Shown here: positions 1,837 through 63,236 of the stretch, piece by piece
Layout of the letters: each line of letters begins with the position of its first letter
How positions within the stretch are numbered: the stretch's first letter is position 1
Source of the DNA: Helianthus annuus
Lineage: Eukaryota; Streptophyta; Magnoliopsida; Asterales; Asteraceae
Direction of reading: 5' to 3'
Length of the DNA stretch: 64,000 bases
NCBI RefSeq assembly: GCF_002127325.2
Contig: NC_035447.2
Coordinates: forward strand, 32,246,642 to 32,310,641
Notes under the pieces: model-generated
Told to the model about the DNA's origin: nothing
Databases searched by the model: none
What the model saw: the letters and a program-made list of their open reading frames with translations, nothing else
Made by a program: the position numbers and the translations under genes

Positions 1837-2961
1837 CATAACTATAGGGAATTAGGTTAGACACGACCTAGTCCGGGTCGCTGTCTTAGAGACCTAGACT
1901 ATAGTTAGGAACCAACAGACCCAGTTTATGTGCCTTATTCTGCAATTCTTCACTATCACTGCACTCGAATTTTCAATTAAAGTCAGGCGATTCAGTCAGG
2001 AATAGGTGTGAAAACCGCAAACTCCCGACTAAATTGACTGACTTATGATGATTTATCCATTACTCATGCTTATCCTGACATTTTCAATAACATACGAGGA
2101 GAATTATACCAAATCAGGAGTGAAATCCCCATTTTGATGAAAATCCACCTTAGGTTTTCTTAAAAACAAGGAAGAAATTGCTAAGCCAAGGGTGAAACCC
2201 TAACCTTGGCAAATTGTCCGAATATTATTCCATCTCACCAAGGCATTCGACGGACTCCAACGACCTGAACTCACAAGTATGACCTAAGGAATGTGTGTTG
2301 AATGCCCAAGAATCGAGGCAGAAACACGACCCTTAAGGTCGAAAGTGACGACAAGTCCACTGTGAATAGTCGGATTGCTTTGGGCAGTCGATGTCTAGTA
2401 GCCGTAGACAATCTACCTCTCGATTTTATGTGTTTCGATTATGAGAACCGCAACCGTGTACTCTGATGACTCGTTGATTTTTATGTGTTTATGTGTGCTT
2501 TCTCTGTTTTTGTGTTTATATTTTGGGATGTTATTCGATTTTGCTACCATTTCAATCGACACACACGACTCGTACTGTTATTCTATCCCTATTCGAACTC
2601 CAGTTGCTGCAATCTAGACGATATTATGCTATGCTATGCTATACGACTAAGTTAGGCTATACTATACTATGCCACCCGATACACCATGCGCGATCGTTAT
2701 ATGAACGACACTCGACTTGGAAGGATAGGTTTCTGTTTTCTGACTGCCTCTGTGATTAAATGCGTATGTGCCTTTCGTGACTATGTGCTTCTGTGCTCTA
2801 CTTGCTTATGTGCTTCTGTGGTTATGTGGATTTTGCGCTTTTGTGTCTATAAGATTACGTGATATGTGTTTCGACGTGTTCCTAAGCTTTAGCAATCTAG
2901 ACGGGTGAGGTGAGATTCGATTACGTTGTGTTGAGTCCTGTGACGATGTCTATTGCAGACC
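1837..2961 (+). other. Untranslated leader of the Tekay element
   Basis: About 1.1 kb between the primer site and gag has no long open frame. It is pyrimidine-rich near 2500-2900, with many TGTG and CTATG repeats, and I see no other gene in it. It probably carries packaging and translation signals. Confidence 0.7.
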
Positions 2962-3840
2962 ATGTTGTCGTCTGGATCACGTCAATGTCTGACCCGCCAA
3001 GAAAAGAGAGACAGGCGTCTCGCTGCTATCATCTCCAAATCCGTGGCGAAAGCTGTGAGTGAGGTGTATGAAAACGCTAGCAAGTCGTCTGAAGGATCTC
3101 ATGCTGATACCCCTAAAGATTCCAGCAAGACTGCTTTTAGCTTCAAGCAGTTTAAAGCATGCGGACCGAAGGAGTTCACCGGTGAGGATGGCCCTACTGC
3201 CATGTTTCATTGGTTCGACTCGGTCGAACTCACCCTGCGACAAAGCGGATGCCCCGAAAATCTCCGCACTCTCAATGCTACCGGCGTATTCCAGTCCCGT
3301 GCTTTAGACTGGTGGACTGCTGAACGAAACAAGCGTGGGAATGATGCAGCATACGAACTGACATGGGGGGAACTGAAGGCGATTATGATCGATGAATTCT
3401 GCCCTCCTCATGAACGCCAAAAGCTGGAGGATGAATTTTGGGTCATTAAGCAGAAGGATGGAGACAACGCTGCTCTCACCGCTCGCTTCAAGCAGCTCAG
3501 TATCATCTGTCCCGATCAAGTCAAGACCTCAGATCAAGCCATCAAGAAGTTCATTCGAGCCCTGCCCGACTGTGTAGCCGACTTTGTTCACGCCGCCAAG
3601 CCAGCAACGATCAAAGAAACCTACCTACTCGCCGCTGAGATCAATGACAAGCGAGTAAAGTCTGGTTTTTGGGATAAGCAAACCAAGTCTCTGCACCAAG
3701 CCACTGCAACACCCACCGACTCGTCTGCTCAATCCTCCAAGTCATCGAGGAGAAAGAAGAAGCACAACAACAACAGCTCCAGCAACAAGAACTGTGCTGT
3801 GACAACCGATGCTGCTCCTCTACAAGCTGTACCAGCTTAA
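2962..3840 (+). CDS. gag: Tekay Gag, capsid part, ended by an in-frame TAA
   Basis: This encodes the capsid half of Gag, which forms the virus-like particle that packages element RNA. The first true ATG is at 2962; an upstream TTG at 2953 is in frame but is not a likely start. The middle (about residues 50-215) has the retrotransposon Gag pattern, including FSFKQFKACGPKEFTG near residue 53, followed by a lysine- and serine-rich tail. The frame ends at TAA 3838-3840, yet the next frame is in register and continues with glutamine-rich sequence and both CCHC zinc knuckles. The stop therefore splits Gag between capsid and nucleocapsid. One C-to-T change in a CAA codon of the CAG/CAA run would explain it. 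Readthrough is an alternative that cannot be excluded. Confidence 0.88.
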   Translation: MLSSGSRQCLTRQEKRDRRLAAIISKSVAKAVSEVYENASKSSEGSHADTPKDSSKTAFSFKQFKACGPKEFTGEDGPTAMFHWFDSVELTLRQSGCPENLRTLNATGVFQSRALDWWTAERNKRGNDAAYELTWGELKAIMIDEFCPPHERQKLEDEFWVIKQKDGDNAALTARFKQLSIICPDQVKTSDQAIKKFIRALPDCVADFVHAAKPATIKETYLLAAEINDKRVKSGFWDKQTKSLHQATATPTDSSAQSSKSSRRKKKHNNNSSSNKNCAVTTDAAPLQAVPA

Positions 3841-6800
3841 CAGCAGCAACAGCACCGCTCAGCTCCAGTGATCAATGCACCGCCAGCAAAGCGTGCATAC
3901 ACAGGCCCTCACCCACTCTGCCCAACGTGTTCGTATCATCACCCGGTGGGTCTAGCCTGTCTATTTTGCGCTCACTGCAACCTTTACGGTCATTTCACTG
4001 CGAACTGTCGCTATGGTCCCCGTCATGCCCCAGCTCAAGCCACTGTCAACCAAGCTCTACTCCCTGCCCCACAAGGCCAACAAGCAGCTCAAGCACCAGC
4101 AACCAATGTTCGAGTCTGCTTTGCATGTGGTGACCCTAACCACTTTGCAAACAGGTGCCCGAACAGGGTGGTTAAGCAAGAGCCCCAGCAGCAACAGCCA
4201 CAACAGCAGCCTCAGCAACAGCAGCAAGCAGCCCATGCCCGAACCTTCAACATCAATGCCCGTCAGGCTCAGGCGGATAACAACGTGGTTAAAGGTACGT
4301 TCCTTGTGAATGGTATTTATGCATCATGTTTGTTTGATACTGGAGCCGATAACTGTTTTGTGTCGTTTGAATTCGAGAAGCTCCTTAGTCGTAAGCGCTC
4401 TTATCTGTCCTCGTCATTTGAAGTCGAAGTCGCTGCGGGAAGAACTATTGCCATTAATTCTGTACTCCGTGATTGTACTCTCGAACTCAACAATCACATC
4501 TTTCCAATCGACCTTATTCCAATGCAACTCAGAAGCTTTGATGTCATAATAGGCATGGACTTTCTTCGCGAAAACCATGCTGAAGTTGTGTGCTTTGAAA
4601 AGATGATACGCTTCTCGCTCGCGAATGGTGATCTATTATGTGTATACGGTGAAACAGCGTCGAAAGGTCTCAAGCTTATGTCATGCGTCCAAGCTAACAA
4701 GTATCTCCGCAAGGAATACCGAGCTTTCCTGGCCAACATTGTAGTAGCGGAGAAGGAAAAGAAAAAGAAAGTTGAAGTCAAAGACGTTCCAGTGGTTCGT
4801 GAATTTCCTCAGGTGTTCCCTGACGATCTTCCTGGACTACCACCAAGTCGTGATATCGACTTCCGCATCGACCTCATTCCTGGAGCTAACCCCGTTGCCA
4901 AAGCCCCTTACCGACTCGCACCATCCGAAATGAGGGAACTCTCGAATCAACTCCAGGAATTACTCGAAAAAGGCTTTATTCGCCCAAGCACCTCTCCTTG
5001 GGGCGCGCCAGTCCTTTTCGTCAAAAAGAAGGACGGATCGTTCCGGATGTGCATCGACTACCAGGAATTGAATAAGCTAACCATCAAGAACCGATACCCC
5101 TTGCCCCGAATCGACGATTTTTTTGATCAGCTACAAGGTGCATCATGTTTCTCTAAGATCGATCTGCATTCAGGATATCATCAGCTACTGATTCAAGAGG
5201 AAGACATCCCCAAAACCGCTTTTCGAACCCGTTATGGCCATTACGAATTTGTTGTTATGCCCTTTGGTCTAACCAACGCACCCGCGGTTTTTATGGACCT
5301 GATGAATCGCGTGTGTAAGCCTTATCTTGACCGTTTCGTCATCGTGTTCATCGACGATGTCTTGATTTATTCCAAAACGAAAGTCGAACACGCGCAACAT
5401 CTACGTTTGGTTCTCGAGTTACTGCAGGGGAACCGACTCTACGCCAAATTCTCCAAGTGCGAATTCTGGTTGGAGGAGGTTCAGTTTCTGGGTCACATCG
5501 TGAATAGTCAGGGTATCCATGTACACCCCGCGAAGATTGAAGCCGTCAAAAGCTGGATTACGCCTAAGAACCCGTCAGAAGTTCGTTCTTTTCTCGGACT
5601 AGCGGACTATTATCAACGATTCATTGAAGGATTCTCCAAGATCGCTGTGCCACTTACTGCTCTTACTCATAAGGGCAAGCCTTTTGTCTGGGGAAACGCA
5701 CAAGAGACTGCCTTTCAAACCCTCAAGAATATGCTGTGCAACGCTCCGATTCTTACGCTGCCCGACGGAAGCGACAATTTCATTGTCTACTGTGATGCTT
5801 CTAACCTTGGTCTCGGCTGTGTGCTCATGCAGCGAGACAAGGTTATAGCCTACGCATCTCGTCAGCTCAAGATCCACGAGAAGAACTATACAACCCATGA
5901 CCTCGAGCTAGGCGCGGTTGTCTTTGCATTGAAGATTTGGCGACACTACCTGTATGGCACTAGGTGTACGATCTACACTGATCACGGGAGTTTACAACAC
6001 ATCTTTAATCAGAGAGAGCTTAATATGCGTCAACGCCGATGGGTAGAACTTCTCAACGATTACGACTGTGAGATTCGTTATCACCCAGGCAAGGCGAATG
6101 TGGTTGCCGACGCGCTCAGCAGAAAGAGTTACGTGCTCAGTACTCGAAACATCCAAGCCCAGCACAATCTCGAAACCCTTATCCGCGAAGCTCAACATGC
6201 TTGCTTTAACGAGCGTACATTGAAGAAAGAGAGAATCTATCACGATGGAGCTCAGTTAGTAAGCAAATCCGATGGGATATTCTATTATCTGGACCGAATT
6301 TGGATCCCTAAGCGGACCCAATTGCGAAAGATTATCATGAATGAAGCCCACAAATCCCGGTATTCTATTCATCCCGGTGCAGATAAGATGTACCAGGACC
6401 TTCGCTATAAGTACTGGTGGCCGGGCATGAAACGAGATATCGCCCTCTACGTTGGAAGTTGTCTAACTTGCGCAAGAGTCAAGGCTGAACATCAAAGACC
6501 TTCTGGCTTACTCGAACAACCACCGATACCTATATGGAAGTGGGAGAGTATAGCTATGGATTTCATAACAAAACTCCCGCCCATGCCATCAGGTCACGAC
6601 AGTATTTGGGTCATAGTCGATCGTCTAACGAAATCAGCCCACTTTTTACCGATACGAGAAGACTACAAGGTGGAGCGACTAGCCCAAATCTACACCGACG
6701 AGATCATTTGTAATCATGGTACGCCTCGTGACATCATTTCAGACCGTGACGCTCGGTTCACTTCACGTTTGCGGGAAACGTTTCAAGCGGCCCTTGGTAC

Positions 6801-7596
6801 GTCGCTTAATCTAAGTACTGCATTCCATCCTCAAACCGACGGACAGACTGAAAGAACGATCCGTGCTCTTGAAGACATGCTCCGAGCGTGTGTCATAGAT
6901 TTTGGTGGTAGTTGGAACAAACACCTGCCATTGGTGGAATTCTCGTACAATAACAGCTATCATGCCAGCATCCAAATGGCACCTTTCGAGGCTTTGTATG
7001 GTAGAAGATGTCGATCGCCTATTGTATGGCACGAGATCGGTCACTCGCAACTAACCGGTCCCGAGATTCTGCAAGAAACGACTGACAAAATCCAACAGAT
7101 TCGAGACAACTTGGTGAAAGCTCGGAACCGACAGAAAAGTTACGCCGATAAAAGACGCAAGCCCCTTGAATTTGAAGTTGGTGACTACGTACTCCTAAAG
7201 GTATTACCTTGGAAGGGTGTAGTCCGATTCGGCAAGAAAGGGAAACTCGCCCCTCGATATGTTGGACCTTTTAGGATTCTGGAAAGAATCGGAAAAGTCG
7301 CCTACAGACTCGACTTACCGGAGGAACTTAGTAACGTCCACCCGACTTTCCATGTGTCAAACCTTCGAAAGTGCTTAGCTGATCATGATTCAATCATACC
7401 GCTCGACGATCTTCATGTCAACGAAACGTTACACTTCATGGAAAAGCCTGTCGAAATCATGGATCGCCAAACCAAGCAACTCAGGCGCTCTCGCATCCCG
7501 ATCGTGAAAGTCCGATGGGAAGGCAAACGAGGCGCGGAGTTCACTTGGGAACTCGAAAGCGACATGAAGGCCAAGTACCCGCAGTTGTTTAAATAA
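3841..7596 (+). CDS. pol: Tekay nucleocapsid-pol polyprotein (PR-RT-RNaseH-IN-chromodomain)
   Basis: The open frame runs without interruption from the TAA at 3838 to 7596; the first in-frame NTG codon is GTG 3868 and there is no clear ATG start. Counting from 3868, two CCHC knuckles lie at C34-C47 and C84-C97, then a glutamine-rich spacer, the aspartic protease motif DTGA at 157-160, and reverse transcriptase with FIDD at about 494-497. RNase H follows ([17 protein letters not shown]), then an HHCC zinc domain near 825-875 and the integrase DDE triad near D896, D958 and E994. The last 60 residues match a Tekay-type chromodomain ([23 protein letters not shown]), thought to direct integration to heterochromatin. 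All catalytic residues look present. Expression would need to pass the upstream stop. Confidence 0.95.
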
Positions 7597-34505: not shown

Positions 34506-34993
34506 GTCAAGTTCAGGGCCGTCCTCAAAAATCCAAAGGTCTTTTAAGGCCCCGTGCAAGTAGAAAAAAATGAGCCCCTAAGTATAAACTAATATATAAA
34601 AAAATCAATAATATAACAATATATATGACTCCCTAAATGAGCCAAAACTAAACATATTTCGGATCTTAGCGTATTATAATATGTTTTTTTAGTTATGAAT
34701 TAACTTAATTTATATTAAGGGGGTGGGGGTGGTCACTAGTGATAGAATTCTATCACTCACAAGCATCCAATCAACTCCTGCCATGTCATCAGCCACTATT
34801 CTATCACTCACATCCTTTTTGTTAGCATTATAAACTTAATATATTACGTTTATGTATTATATTCAAATTATGTGTATTATGTATACTTAATGTAGAAGAC
34901 AAATATGTAATATGTGAACGGTTATGTGGCAAGGGTTGGCACCGTTTTAAACGGTTGGTTTTCCTTCCAAATTTAACCGCCACCAACCGACAC

Positions 34994-35000
34994 TATATAA
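34994..35000 (+). promoter_or_regulatory. TATA box in the LTR of the ARID element
   Basis: TATATAA lies about 95 bp upstream of ATG 35090, after a pair of GCCGGCAC/GTCCGGCACC-flanking words. The same box is in the right LTR near 36767. Confidence 0.75.
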
Positions 35001-35089
35001 GTAGATGGCCGGCACTTATGTCCGGCACCAAGAGACAATATCGTTTGATCTTGTTCTCCAATAACATTACTTAATATTTCTTGTTAATC

Positions 35090-35938
35090 ATGAATTCCAA
35101 ACTATCAAATGATTCCGCTGCAAGTATACATTCAAATCCAACAAGTGGTATCAGAGCCAGAGCCACTACTGGAAGAGAAGAGATCCCTGCAACAACATCA
35201 ACAACTCTGCCATGCCTGCACTGTTCGTATGAGAAGAAAGAAAGGCGAAGATTTCAAAGGAAGTGTTATTACTGCGATCAATTAGGACATCAGATTGCAG
35301 AGTGCAAGAAGAAAGATGAGGACGAACCCACACAACTCATACGTTTGGCGATTAACACGGGAACTCATTCACAGAAGGAGATCGGTGATGACAGTCAAAA
35401 CGAACGGAGTTCAGAATTCATGGTGACTGGAACAGATGGAAGTTACTGGTTAGATATCTGGTATGTTAGCAAATCGTTTAAACGACACTATTCTGGAAAT
35501 TTAAACATGTTTAAGCGAATTAAACCACTGTTTGATGTTGAAACGAAAACCGGCGAATGTAATTTTTATTTCATCAAAGGAATAGGGGTTGTTGAAATAG
35601 TTTCTGGATCTGAAAAATATCGAATCCAGAGTGTATTTTATACACCAGACATAGATCGAAATGTTCTGAGTTTTGATCAATTGATCACACAAGGTTATAG
35701 AGTGAAGTTTACGGGTGATCAATGTAAAATTTATCCAACATTCAGAATTCCTATATTCAATAAGAGAAATGAAATGTCTGGTTATACACGAGAAGATGAT
35801 ATAGGCAACAAAGAAAAGGAAGAGATGTTGAACTCTGAAACAGAGTATGAAAAATTCAAGAATGATTACTTTAATTCATACTTCGAGAGTTTAAACATAT
35901 CTTCGGAAGAGCCCGATTGGAATGTAATGATATTATAA
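35090..35938 (+). CDS. CCHC zinc-knuckle protein with copia protease-like domain lacking its active site
   Basis: The first ATG (35090) lies inside the left LTR and the frame runs through the LTR end and primer site, giving 282 residues. C59-x2-C62-x4-H67-x4-C72 is a retroviral-type zinc knuckle, with an extra CxxC at 42-45. After an acidic linker, about residues 110-235 match the region of copia polyproteins around the protease and pre-integrase part (YWLDIW, YSGNLNMF, SVFYTPDIDRNVLSFDQLI, GYRVKFTGDQCKIYP). The catalytic D-S/T-G reads D-I-W, so proteolysis is unlikely. The C terminus is charged and glutamate-rich. It ends at TAA 35936-35938, in the same frame as the ARID protein. RNA binding and packaging of the element is a reasonable guess for the knuckle. 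Confidence 0.8.
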   Translation: MNSKLSNDSAASIHSNPTSGIRARATTGREEIPATTSTTLPCLHCSYEKKERRRFQRKCYYCDQLGHQIAECKKKDEDEPTQLIRLAINTGTHSQKEIGDDSQNERSSEFMVTGTDGSYWLDIWYVSKSFKRHYSGNLNMFKRIKPLFDVETKTGECNFYFIKGIGVVEIVSGSEKYRIQSVFYTPDIDRNVLSFDQLITQGYRVKFTGDQCKIYPTFRIPIFNKRNEMSGYTREDDIGNKEKEEMLNSETEYEKFKNDYFNSYFESLNISSEEPDWNVMIL

Positions 35939-35941
35939 GTA

Positions 35942-36565
35942 ATGTCATTCAATGAATTCCAAGACTGCAAGGCCTTATTAGATATGTTGGAAGATGATGA
36001 ATATGTGCAAAGGTACAAGTTCTATATCGAAAAAAAATTCAAAGAAATGGTCGATTGGTTTCTAAAGATTAAGTTAGAAATAAACACTAGACCATTGCCT
36101 GCTTATGCCGAGAACCACAGAAAAGTAAGTCTACTGGAGTTATATTTAGCAGTTAGAAGAGAGGGCGGTCATCGTCGGGTTACAGACAATCATATGTGGG
36201 CAGTAATTTCTAAGGACATGGGCCTCGATTACAATGATGGAGAGTTAATGCGACTTATGTACGCGATGTATCTGGACGTGCTAGTGTACTATTACAAAGT
36301 TAAATCCACTCAACAGACAGCAGCCGGGAAGGAAGTCAAGGAGGACATCGGAGACAAAAGACGGACCAGGAGTATGGAGATGGATGTAGGCACGAGTGAC
36401 CAGTCCAGTGCAGATCAAGGAGGAGCAGAAGACGAGCATTATGTACTCTTTGCGGGAAATGACTGGTATGGAATGAAGAGACTAAAGCAGAGAAAGAAGT
36501 TCGATTTCCGAAGAGCTGAGAAGGCAGTAAATGAGGCGAATGATAGCGTGCAGAAACATTCATGA
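35942..36565 (+). CDS. ARID/BRIGHT-domain protein, 207 residues
   Basis: The ATG lies three bases after the stop of the upstream frame, in the same register. Residues about 38-120 carry the ARID pattern: RPLPAY near the start, VSLLELYLAVRREGGHRRVT (the L-x-x-L-Y-x-x-V...GG...VT core), then MWAVISKDMGL and Y-x-x-YLDVLVYYY. ARID domains bind DNA, often AT-rich, and are normally found in chromatin regulators. The tail is acidic and then basic (RTRSMEMD, KQRKKFDFRRAEK), with no transposase or polymerase motif. Translation could follow readthrough of the TAA or reinitiation at ATG 35942. An ARID domain inside an LTR element suggests capture of a host chromatin-protein exon, or an old retrotransposon accessory gene. 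Confidence 0.82.
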   Translation: MSFNEFQDCKALLDMLEDDEYVQRYKFYIEKKFKEMVDWFLKIKLEINTRPLPAYAENHRKVSLLELYLAVRREGGHRRVTDNHMWAVISKDMGLDYNDGELMRLMYAMYLDVLVYYYKVKSTQQTAAGKEVKEDIGDKRRTRSMEMDVGTSDQSSADQGGAEDEHYVLFAGNDWYGMKRLKQRKKFDFRRAEKAVNEANDSVQKHS

Positions 36566-37280
36566 AAAGGGAATTAAGTTTATGGGGAGTGATTGTTAGC
36601 ATTATAAACTTAATATATTACGTTTATGTATTATATTCAAATTATGTGTATTATGTATACTTAATGTAGAAGACAAATATGTAATATGTGAACGGTTATG
36701 TGGCAAGGGTTGGCACCGTTTTAAACTGTTGGCTTTCCCTCCAAATTTAACCGCCACCAACCGACACTATATAAGTAGATGGCCGGCATTTATGTCCGGC
36801 ACCAAGAGACAATATCGTTTGATCTTGTTCTCCAATAACATTACTTAATATTTCTTGTTAATCATGAATTCCAAACTATCAAATGATTCCGCTGCAAGTA
36901 TACATTCAAATCCAACACTTTTTTAGTGGCAATGGTCATCACTCACAACACCTAACAATAAACCCCCACACCCCCTCACATCCATCATTTTTCACGCGTG
37001 ATAAAAATAACGGACGGTGGACATTTTGAGTTCATCACGCGTTGAACTAATCAGTGGCGGTGGGAATCTTGTTTTTTCCACGCGTGATAAAGGCTATCAC
37101 GGAAGTTTAACGCTGCCACCCCCAGTGGCCTAACTTAAAGTATATTACAGATCTAATTATATAAAACATTTTAAAAAGAACATTTACATAATTAACTAAA
37201 AATAGAAAAGAAAGCTTCTAGGAAATAGAAAAAGAGAATTAAAACCTATAAAAATGGGCTAGTCAAAACCCGAAATTAGG

Positions 37281-56818: not shown

Positions 56819-57610
56819 TCAAAGACTATCAGGGTATTGGAACATGTTGAATGATGGATTAACAATACCAAATCCACCATCAATAAACAAGTTTTGTCCG
56901 TTAATGTGCTTTGCCTCGTCGCTCACCAAGAAAATGGCTGCTTTAGCAATATCATTAGCTTTAAGTGTCACACCTTTGAGGTCTGCAAGTAAGTTCGGCT
57001 TGTTCTCCACAGCTTCGCTATCCATCTCCAGAAAATTTGTGCCTATGGGTGTGGCTATTGGTAAGGTGACAAACAATTGACTCGAATGCCAAATTGTCCA
57101 AGCTCTACCGCTAAATTCTTGGTCAAACCAGTTACAACATGTTTTGCACAAGTGTAAGCATGTGTGGCCATACCACCAATATTTGAAGCAACACTAGCCG
57201 TCGATATTATTGAGCCAGCCCGTGCTGGAACCATAACCCTAGCAGCATGTTTCATGCCTACAAAGACGCATGTGATGTTAACACTAAGCTCACGCTCAAA
57301 GTCTGTCTTTTCATTGTCAATGATGCGTTCCTTGTAAAAATCTAATATCCCAGCATTGTTAAACATGATGTTGAGTTTTCCAAAAGTGGTGACTGCAATA
57401 TCCACTGTATTTTTAACATCTTCTTCGTTAGCTACGTCACAATGAATATATATCGAGTTTGATAAACCTATAGGTTCACAGATAGCGTGATCAAGTTGGT
57501 CTTGAATGTCGGCAATGACGATTTTTGCACCATGTTCAGCAAATAGTTTTGCGGAACACTCCCCAATTCCACTTGCTCCTCCGGTTATCAATGCTACCTT
57601 TCCCTCTAGT
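56819..57610 (-). pseudogene. SDR (short-chain dehydrogenase) pseudogene, paralog of 62336-63236
   Basis: Exon 2 of an SDR of the ABA2/secoisolariciresinol dehydrogenase-like group (SDR110C) lies on the minus strand. It keeps TGGASGIG, NNAG, the S...YTCAK active site and the GQNLFIDGGFGIVNPSF end. One base is missing near 57058 compared with the intact paralog, so the frame hits TAG after NCLSPYQ; the downstream part is open in the next frame. The acceptor before LEGKVALITG is present (57614-57611), but a counterpart of the 20-nt first exon was not found upstream. It shares its 3' flank with the intact copy. Confidence 0.9.
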
Positions 57611-62335: not shown

Positions 62336-63236
62336 TCAAAGGCTTTCGGGGTATTGAAACATGCTGAACGATGGATTAACAATACCAAATCCACCATCGA
62401 TAAACAAGTTTTGCCCGCTAATGTACTTTGCCTCGTCGCTCACCAAGAAAAGGGCTGCTTTAGCAATATCATCAGCTTTAAGCGTCACACCTTTGAGGTT
62501 TGCAAGTAAGTTCGCCTTGTTCTCCACCGCTTCGCTATCCATCTCAAGAAAATTTGTGGCTATTGGTGTGGCTACTGCGTAAGGCGACAAACAATTGACT
62601 CGAATGCCGAATTGTCCAAGCTCTACTGCCAAATTCTTGGTCAAACCAGTTACAGCATGTTTTGCACAAGTGTAAGCATGTGTGGCCACACCACCAATAT
62701 TTGAAGCATTACTAGCTGTCGATATTATTGAGCCAGCTCGTGCGGGAACCATAACCCTAGCAGCATGTTTCATGCCAAGAAAGACCCCTGTAACGTTAAC
62801 ACTAAGCACACGCTCAAAGTCTGTCTTTTCATTGTCGATGATGCGTGCCTTGTAAGAATCTACTATACCTGCATTATTGAACATGATATCGAGTTTTCCA
62901 AAAGTGGCGACTGCAATATCCACAGTATTTTTAACATCTTCTTCATTGGCTACGTCACAATGAACATATATCGAATTTGAAAAACCTATAGCTTCACAAA
63001 CTGCTTTACCAAGTTGGTCTTGAATGTCTGCAATGACGATTTTTGCACCATGTTTAGCAAATAGTTTTGCAGAACACTCTCCTATTCCACTTGCTGCTCC
63101 GGTTATCAACGCCACCTTTCCCTCTAATCTACAACATTTATATCAAATAATAAAAACTCATTTAGGTAAATAGTAACATTCTAAGCATTTAAAGCTTGCA
63201 TAACTAAAAAAATAACCTTTTGGAAGTAGCTGCCAT
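62336..63236 (-). CDS. Short-chain dehydrogenase/reductase (SDR110C, ABA2/SDH-like), two exons, 270 residues
   Basis: This is an NAD(H)-dependent oxidoreductase of the classical SDR fold, probably acting on a plant alcohol or ketone (terpenoid, lignan or xanthoxin-type); the substrate cannot be read from sequence. Exon 1 is only 20 nt (63236-63217, MAATSK plus AG) and exon 2 runs 63128-62336. Seen: TGAASGIG at 16-23 for the cofactor, D41 after strand 2 favouring NAD, NNAG at 91-94. The catalytic tetrad is N118, S146, Y159, K163, and the C-terminal signature GGFGIVNPSF. The frame is intact, unlike the paralog at 56819-57610. A 693-bp MITE separates the start codon from the likely TATA region (CATATAG near 63982-63988), so the native 5' UTR is split. 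The tiny first exon is typical of this subfamily. Confidence 0.93.

What the first reader, a model, noticed from the sequence alone, without database searches (positions are those of the whole stretch)
34820..36917. A 2.1-kb LTR element that encodes a CCHC knuckle protein and an ARID DNA-binding protein but no polymerase
Seen: 324-bp LTRs about 98.8 percent identical, a 5-bp TSD, primer site, polypurine tract, and an interior that is nearly all open reading frame. Known: non-autonomous LTR elements (TRIM, LARD) usually lack coding capacity, and ARID domains belong to host chromatin regulators. Inference: this is a parasite of an autonomous copia element that keeps an RNA-binding Gag-like module plus a captured ARID domain, possibly to steer integration or to affect chromatin. 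The frames have stayed open despite lacking enzymes, hinting at selection.
Basis: partly seen in the sequence, partly recalled or inferred. Interest (0 to 1): 0.93.

Follow-up and report, generated by a model that had tools for sequence, protein, structure and literature searches.

The report
Sunflower jumping genes carrying ARID protein
Sunflower chromosomes carry a large family of small jumping genes that cannot copy themselves, yet keep a protein joining a retroviral-type zinc knuckle, a probably dead protease fold and a host-like DNA-binding ARID domain; selection has preserved that protein and some copies moved very recently, so it probably does a job for the parasite.

Summary
In detail: 34820-36917 is a 2,098-bp LTR element with 324-bp LTRs (4 differences), a CTTTT target duplication, a tRNA primer site and an almost fully coding interior. 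Three corrections change its meaning. (1) The two "proteins" are one frame that starts inside the LTR and runs through the primer site; this copy has an in-frame stop, many relatives do not. (2) Between knuckle and ARID lies a retropepsin-like domain (Pol_BBD); the motif D[ST]G[AS] is absent from 74 of 74 relatives of 400 aa or more. (3) It is a large sunflower family: 57 of 88 and 67 of 87 best-scored protein matches have no stop, and five copies on four contigs are nearly identical over 2.1 kb, with 0-1 LTR mismatches and unrelated flanks. The protein is under purifying selection (ML omega 0.088; ARID 0.060). No reverse transcriptase or integrase is encoded, and no larger element with these LTRs appeared among the hits scored. 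Best reading: a recently active, trans-mobilised copia-type satellite whose own RNA/DNA-binding protein helps its replication, probably at a nuclear step. AT-rich targeting is not shown. New variant of the TR-GAG kind.

The parts
34815..34819 (.). target-site duplication, left copy (CTTTT)
34820..35143 (+). 5' LTR, 324 bp, TGTTAG...CCAACA; 4 differences from the 3' LTR
34994..35000 (+). TATA-like box in the LTR, about 96 bp before the ATG
35090..35938 (+). first part of the reading frame (282 aa), from an ATG inside the LTR through the primer site to an in-frame stop at 35936-35938
35146..35158 (+). primer-binding site TGGTATCAGAGCC (initiator-Met tRNA type, assignment recalled), translated as GIRA in this frame
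35258..35311 (+). CCHC zinc knuckle
   Evidence: PF00098
35459..35698 (+). Pol_BBD / retropepsin-like domain without the D[S/T]G motif
35942..36565 (+). second part of the same frame (207 aa), with ARID and conserved C-terminal tail
36014..36307 (+). ARID fold (Pfam match 36089-36277)
36584..36591 (+). polypurine tract (GGGGAGTG)
36594..36917 (+). 3' LTR, 324 bp
36918..36922 (.). target-site duplication, right copy (CTTTT)

Best explanation
SHOWN: the window holds one inactivated copy of a large, recently active family of about 2.1-kb LTR elements in sunflower. Intact copies encode one protein of about 480-550 aa, which starts inside the LTR, reads through the primer site and carries a CCHC knuckle, a retropepsin-like domain lacking the usual active-site motif, an ARID domain and a conserved tail. 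The protein is under purifying selection; no RT, RNase H or integrase is encoded. INFERRED: an unidentified copia element supplies capsid, RT and integrase in trans. INFERRED: because an element that moves in trans keeps its ORF only if the product favours the RNA or DNA that encodes it, the protein acts with cis preference. It probably binds its own transcript by the knuckle, dimerises by the protease fold, and by ARID holds the RNA/cDNA complex or the donor LTR on chromatin, so that the satellite gains a larger share of the partner's machinery at a nuclear step. Which nuclear step (import/tethering, transcription, integration) is open.
For: Family and architecture: (all listed hits Helianthus). 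One frame: 43 of 120 proteins match a pattern across the junction, full-length proteins. Primer site translated as GIRA in 84 of 96 proteins with a CCHC motif; in 96 proteins that pass a looser motif the four residues are identical in 93-96 while neighbours vary. Selection: 14 non-redundant intact frames, ML omega 0.088 overall, knuckle 0.120, BBD 0.076, linker 0.064, ARID 0.060, tail 0.114; close pairs, e.g. 25 synonymous / 13 nonsynonymous and 50.5 / 9.5 changes, p 7e-10 and 6e-26 against neutrality. Recent movement: L072-L076, five loci, LTR mismatches 0,0,0,0,1, target duplications in 4 of 5, unrelated flanks. Stop-free matches: 57 of 88, 67 of 87. Folds.
Confidence: 0.6

Rival explanations
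1. The protein is chiefly a transcriptional or anti-silencing factor: ARID binds the element's own LTR or nearby chromatin and keeps the family expressed, as recalled for proteins such as VANC of plant DNA transposons; the knuckle and protease fold are scaffold.
Against: The knuckle (0.120) and protease fold (0.076) are also constrained, which a purely transcriptional role would not need. No expression data.
Confidence: 0.22
2. ARID steers integration into particular chromatin, like the chromodomain of chromoviruses.
For: Domain logic; integration steering by a chromodomain is published (Gao et al. 2008, seen only as a reference-list entry in PMC9289625). The 21 target duplications are 73.3% AT (no control).
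Against: No integrase of its own; flanks of the same 21 insertions are at background AT content.
Confidence: 0.12
3. Host-domesticated CCHC-ARID genes that have been duplicated, with LTR remnants, and serve the plant.
For: Annotators name them transcription factors; one carries a LOC name with isoform (P0186); GAG-host fusions without LTRs are published in sunflower (PMC9784723, passages).
Against: LTR pairs in 32 of 37 loci, target duplications and near-identical dispersed copies; primer site conserved inside the coding frame.
Confidence: 0.06
4. A passive deletion derivative that happened to capture an ARID, with no function for the protein.
For: Non-autonomous LTR elements commonly arise by deletion (general knowledge); the window copy is itself broken, as are most copies closest to it.
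Against: Purifying selection and many stop-free frames across divergent subfamilies.
Confidence: 0.04

Closest known systems
TR-GAG elements (terminal-repeat retrotransposons with a GAG domain; reported in sunflower, PMC9784723, passages seen)
   Same: Two LTRs, one ORF with a retroelement-derived protein, no polymerase, described as able to move although non-autonomous.
   Different: No copia GAG capsid domain found by Pfam; instead knuckle + protease-like domain without active-site motif + host-type ARID, ORF starting in the LTR. 'ARID' occurs 0 times in that paper's main text.
TR-RT, TR-RT-RH, TR-RH, TR-INT-RT elements of sunflower (PMC9784723, passages)
   Same: Non-autonomous, one retained retroelement protein.
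   Different: Those keep enzyme domains; this keeps none with a recognised active site and adds a host-type domain.
HadGAG1-3, GAG-host protein fusions of sunflower (PMC9784723, passages)
   Same: Retroelement domain fused to a host domain.
   Different: Those loci have no LTRs and 4-10 exons; these are multi-copy mobile elements with one uninterrupted frame.
Gypsy elements of Phalaenopsis with an acquired m6A demethylase domain (PMC9289625, part of the abstract seen)
   Same: Plant LTR elements that acquired and kept an extra domain.
   Different: 25-kb Gypsy elements against 2.1-kb copia-type satellites without polymerase; 'ARID' 0 times in that text.
Bs1 of maize (one passage in PMC7264820)
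   Same: LTR element with transduced host sequence.
   Different: Not compared here by copy number or selection; 'ARID' 0 times in PMC7264820.

Membership tests
LTR retrotransposon | Near-identical terminal direct repeats, short target duplication, tRNA primer site, polypurine tract | tested here: met
   for the window; LTR pairs in 32 of 37 loci, each of these with the primer site; target duplication found in 21 of the 37, of which L031 (T run) and L035 (TA repeat) are weak
LTR retrotransposon | Recent dispersal as near-identical copies with unrelated flanks | tested here: met
   L072-L076
Copia (Ty1) superfamily | Order of integrase before reverse transcriptase in pol | not testable with these tools
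   no integrase or RT encoded; assignment rests on Pol_BBD, the primer site and the 5-bp duplication
Copia (Ty1) superfamily | Pol_BBD domain after a CCHC knuckle | tested here: met
   for the window; Pol_BBD in 11 of 15 members scanned, CCHC by Pfam in only 5 of 15 (P0082, P0095 and P0104 lack that part)
TR-GAG | Two LTRs and one ORF, no RT or integrase | tested here: met
TR-GAG | ORF encodes a GAG capsid domain | tested here: not met
   Pfam scans of the window ORFs (E up to 10) and 15 members (E up to 0.01) give no GAG family; only the knuckle of the GAG end
ARID domain | Pfam gathering score and ARID fold | tested here: met
Active retropepsin | D-[S/T]-G active-site motif | tested here: not met
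   0 of 74 proteins of 400 aa or more, 1 of 254 overall (many of them fragments), match D[ST]G[AS]
TRIM / LARD | No coding capacity | tested here: not met
   conserved frame under selection
Domesticated host gene | Single-copy or orthologous locus without mobility marks | tested here: not met

The most novel reading that the evidence does not exclude
A protein-coding satellite retrotransposon: a lineage that gave up capsid and all enzymes, replaced the rest of pol by a host chromatin domain, and evolved its own nucleoprotein (knuckle, dead protease as dimer scaffold, ARID) to compete for a partner's particles and for the nucleus, surviving long enough for subfamilies to differ by half their residues.
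Probability: 0.4. Interest if true: 0.86.

Novelty: new variant of a known kind. Interest (0 to 1): 0.72.

Why it matters
Non-autonomous LTR elements are usually read as decayed passengers. Here one has kept a protein of its own for a long time, with a host chromatin domain, and is very young in places. That makes testable how a genetic parasite of a parasite obtains cis preference and what a host DNA-binding domain does for it. It also means that many sunflower genes named 'transcription factor ARID' or 'CCHC(Zn) family' are probably mobile elements, which matters for gene counts and expression studies in a crop.

Tried and rejected
AT-rich targeting: 21 insertions with target duplications, flanks 61.5% AT (within 50 bp) and 62.6% (200 bp) against 61.1% for 100-bp pieces of the window. 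The duplications themselves are 73.3% AT, for which I made no control. Two of the 21 (L022, L024) share flanks, so 20 sites are independent. Not shown; small sample, window-only background.

Autonomous partner by LTR similarity: window LTR, best 40 of 85 candidates; L072 LTR, best 40 of 293. In one search, 36 hits form 18 pairs spaced about 1.74-1.75 kb and 4 are single; no wider pair. Only the best 40 were scored in each, so a partner is not excluded.

Relatives outside Helianthus: three protein searches list 120 of 125, 51 of 51 and 120 of 340 hits; all listed are Helianthus. The 5 unlisted hits and 220 are unknown, and the tool needs shared 5-residue words, so absence elsewhere is not shown.

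Host donor of the ARID: a PF01388 scan scored 150 of 1,349 candidates; 88 of the 150 lie in open frames of 400 aa or more. I could not tell the host genes apart and built no donor tree. By sequence profile the best solved matches are SWI1-type ARIDs, too weak for an origin.

Pol_BBD control (do ordinary sunflower copias have the D[S/T]G motif there?): not obtained. The genome search was busy each time, and a motif scan of fetched loci and window printed nothing. That the motif is normal in copia is recalled.

One search failed and was redone. One search stopped on a division error after its set-up; the pair tables were computed. My first LTR/duplication finder missed the duplications of L072-L076 because their LTRs begin TATTAG.

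Literature: searches listed no ARID-bearing LTR element that I could recognise from titles and abstracts. They cover open-licence PMC papers only. PMC8725346, the only paper with all terms, was not opened; of the 558 papers and 29, 20 each were listed. The TR-GAG founding paper is not held.

Full report
WHAT IS THERE. The window lies on contig C15 of a 3.01-Gb assembly. Contig lengths such as 208,320,189 (C4) and 206,736,614 (C16) recur as contigs of Helianthus annuus proteins, so the species is most likely sunflower.

ONE PROTEIN, NOT TWO. ORF1 (35090-35938) and ORF2 (35942-36565) share a frame and are separated by a stop at 35936-35938. Of 120 relatives found with ORF2, 43 match a pattern that spans the junction (many of the others start downstream of it), and relatives with all parts exist as single proteins, e.g. 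412-489 aa and up to about 580 aa (a few longer ones there are joined to other domains). The window copy is therefore a broken member. Pfam gives, in order, CCHC knuckle, Pol_BBD and ARID for the window. Of 15 family members scanned, 11 have Pol_BBD, 11 ARID and 5 CCHC; three of the 15 lack the first two parts altogether.

THE FRAME STARTS IN THE LTR. In 8 of 8 loci examined an in-frame ATG lies 56 or 86 bp before the primer site, i.e. in the LTR; a TATA-like box was found in 5 of these 8. The primer site is translated as GIRA. 84 of 96 proteins with a CCHC motif contain GIRA exactly; of the 12 without, some have near variants and others start downstream. In 96 proteins selected by a looser motif, the four residues are identical in 93-96 cases while the neighbours vary (selecting by the motif favours this). 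I read this as the mark of a primer site kept for reverse transcription.

A LARGE AND YOUNG FAMILY. DNA search with the interior scored 40 of 482 candidates, identities 71-86% beyond the window itself. Protein searches scored 88 matches (57 without stop) from 4,584 first-look candidates and 87 matches (67 without stop) from 15,149. First-look numbers are not copy numbers, and the best-scored rows favour intact copies. By contrast, among the 33 fetched regions of copies closest to the window by DNA (two of them overlapping pieces of one tandem array), 7 hold a complete frame and 26 do not. Five copies, L072-L076, agree over about 2.1 kb with 6 variable positions inside the element (16 further listed columns lie at or beyond its edge). 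Their LTRs differ at 0, 0, 0, 0 and 1 positions, and 4 of 5 have a 5-bp duplication. With a rate of 1.3e-8 per site per year (recalled, from rice) the window copy would be about 0.5 million years old and these five far younger.

SELECTION. One search found 19 intact frames, one of them twice because regions L015 and L016 overlap; 14 non-redundant ones and 441 codon columns were used. Broken copies were left out. IQ-TREE GY+F3X4 gave omega 0.088 overall, knuckle 0.120, BBD 0.076, linker 0.064, ARID 0.060, tail 0.114 (run, last values in the logs read). Pairwise NG86 for the 17 of 91 pairs with usable dS had a median of 0.114. Synonymous sites are saturated in most pairs (56-80% of pairs by segment), so I also counted changes in close pairs: L027-L035 25 synonymous and 13 nonsynonymous; L016-L017 25 and 17; L072-L084 50.5 and 9.5; L081-L082 80.2 and 53.8; all four far from neutral (p about 9e-9 or less). 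Single domains of close pairs are often too short to be significant, for example ARID in L072-L084 (2 and 2, p 0.16). Window ORF1 against L015, L017, L027 and L028 gives 0.055-0.111; for ORF2 dS was saturated in all five comparisons.

MOSAICS. Identity of the window element to L009 falls from 96% to 74% along the element, and L072-L084 differ much more in BBD and linker than in ARID. This looks like recombination between subfamilies, as template switching in shared particles would give (inference).

HOW IT PROBABLY WORKS. No RT, RNase H or integrase is encoded, so replication must be in trans. A product that served all elements equally would not be maintained by selection on the element; the low omega therefore argues for cis preference. 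Knuckle to own RNA, protease fold as dimer scaffold and ARID to DNA or chromatin is the simplest assignment. The nuclear step is undecided. AT-rich targeting is not shown: flanks of 21 sites are at background, while the 5-bp duplications are 73.3% AT without a control. The partner was not found: LTR searches returned mostly LTRs next to members of the same family and a few single LTRs, each with only the best 40 scored.

COMPARISON. TR-GAG elements are closest, but their defining GAG domain is not met here. PMC9784723 (passages) extends the class in sunflower to TR-RT, TR-RH and others, with 0 mentions of ARID. PMC7730604, PMC9289625 and PMC7264820 (two passages each seen) also have 0 mentions. 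I call it a new variant of a known kind. All listed protein hits are Helianthus; saturated synonymous divergence between subfamilies suggests that the fusion is old, so wider searches should find it in other Asteraceae, unless replication raises its mutation rate.

Noticed in passing
G000:C10:9206257-9219993 (loci L015, L016): Eight interiors of this family in head-to-tail tandem, spaced about 1.76 kb, so one LTR lies between neighbours; similar doubles and triples at C9:128598275, C6:55569029 and C14:167083301.
   Followed up: partly
window 34720-34819 and 36923-37130: The element sits inside a sequence whose ends share an inverted TGGGGGTGG, perhaps a MITE-like repeat with CACGCGTGATA motifs.
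   Followed up: partly
P0183, P0184: Annotated sunflower proteins in which the BBD-ARID part is joined to a glucosyltransferase or an inositol-polyphosphate kinase domain; chimeric gene models or real read-through from LTR copies.
   Followed up: no
window 2953-7596: Two neighbouring long ORFs that look like a Gypsy-type element (gag, then protease to integrase, 1242 aa) (naming by eye).
   Followed up: no
window 57055-57591 and 62336-63115 (-): Two similar short-chain dehydrogenase-like ORFs, apparently a tandem duplicate with one shorter (naming by eye).
   Followed up: no
G000:C4:14874871-14875193: LTR 95% identical to the window LTR without a matching neighbour in the list, perhaps a solo LTR.
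   Followed up: no
L028, L030, L038, L040, L072-L076: LTRs of several subfamilies begin TATTAG instead of TGTTAG while still ending in CA.
   Followed up: no
P-family alignments A2, A3, A4: A second conserved pair PCxHC lies before the CCHC knuckle, and a conserved tail (HYA..GNDW..R..FDF) after ARID; the Pfam scans name neither.
   Followed up: no
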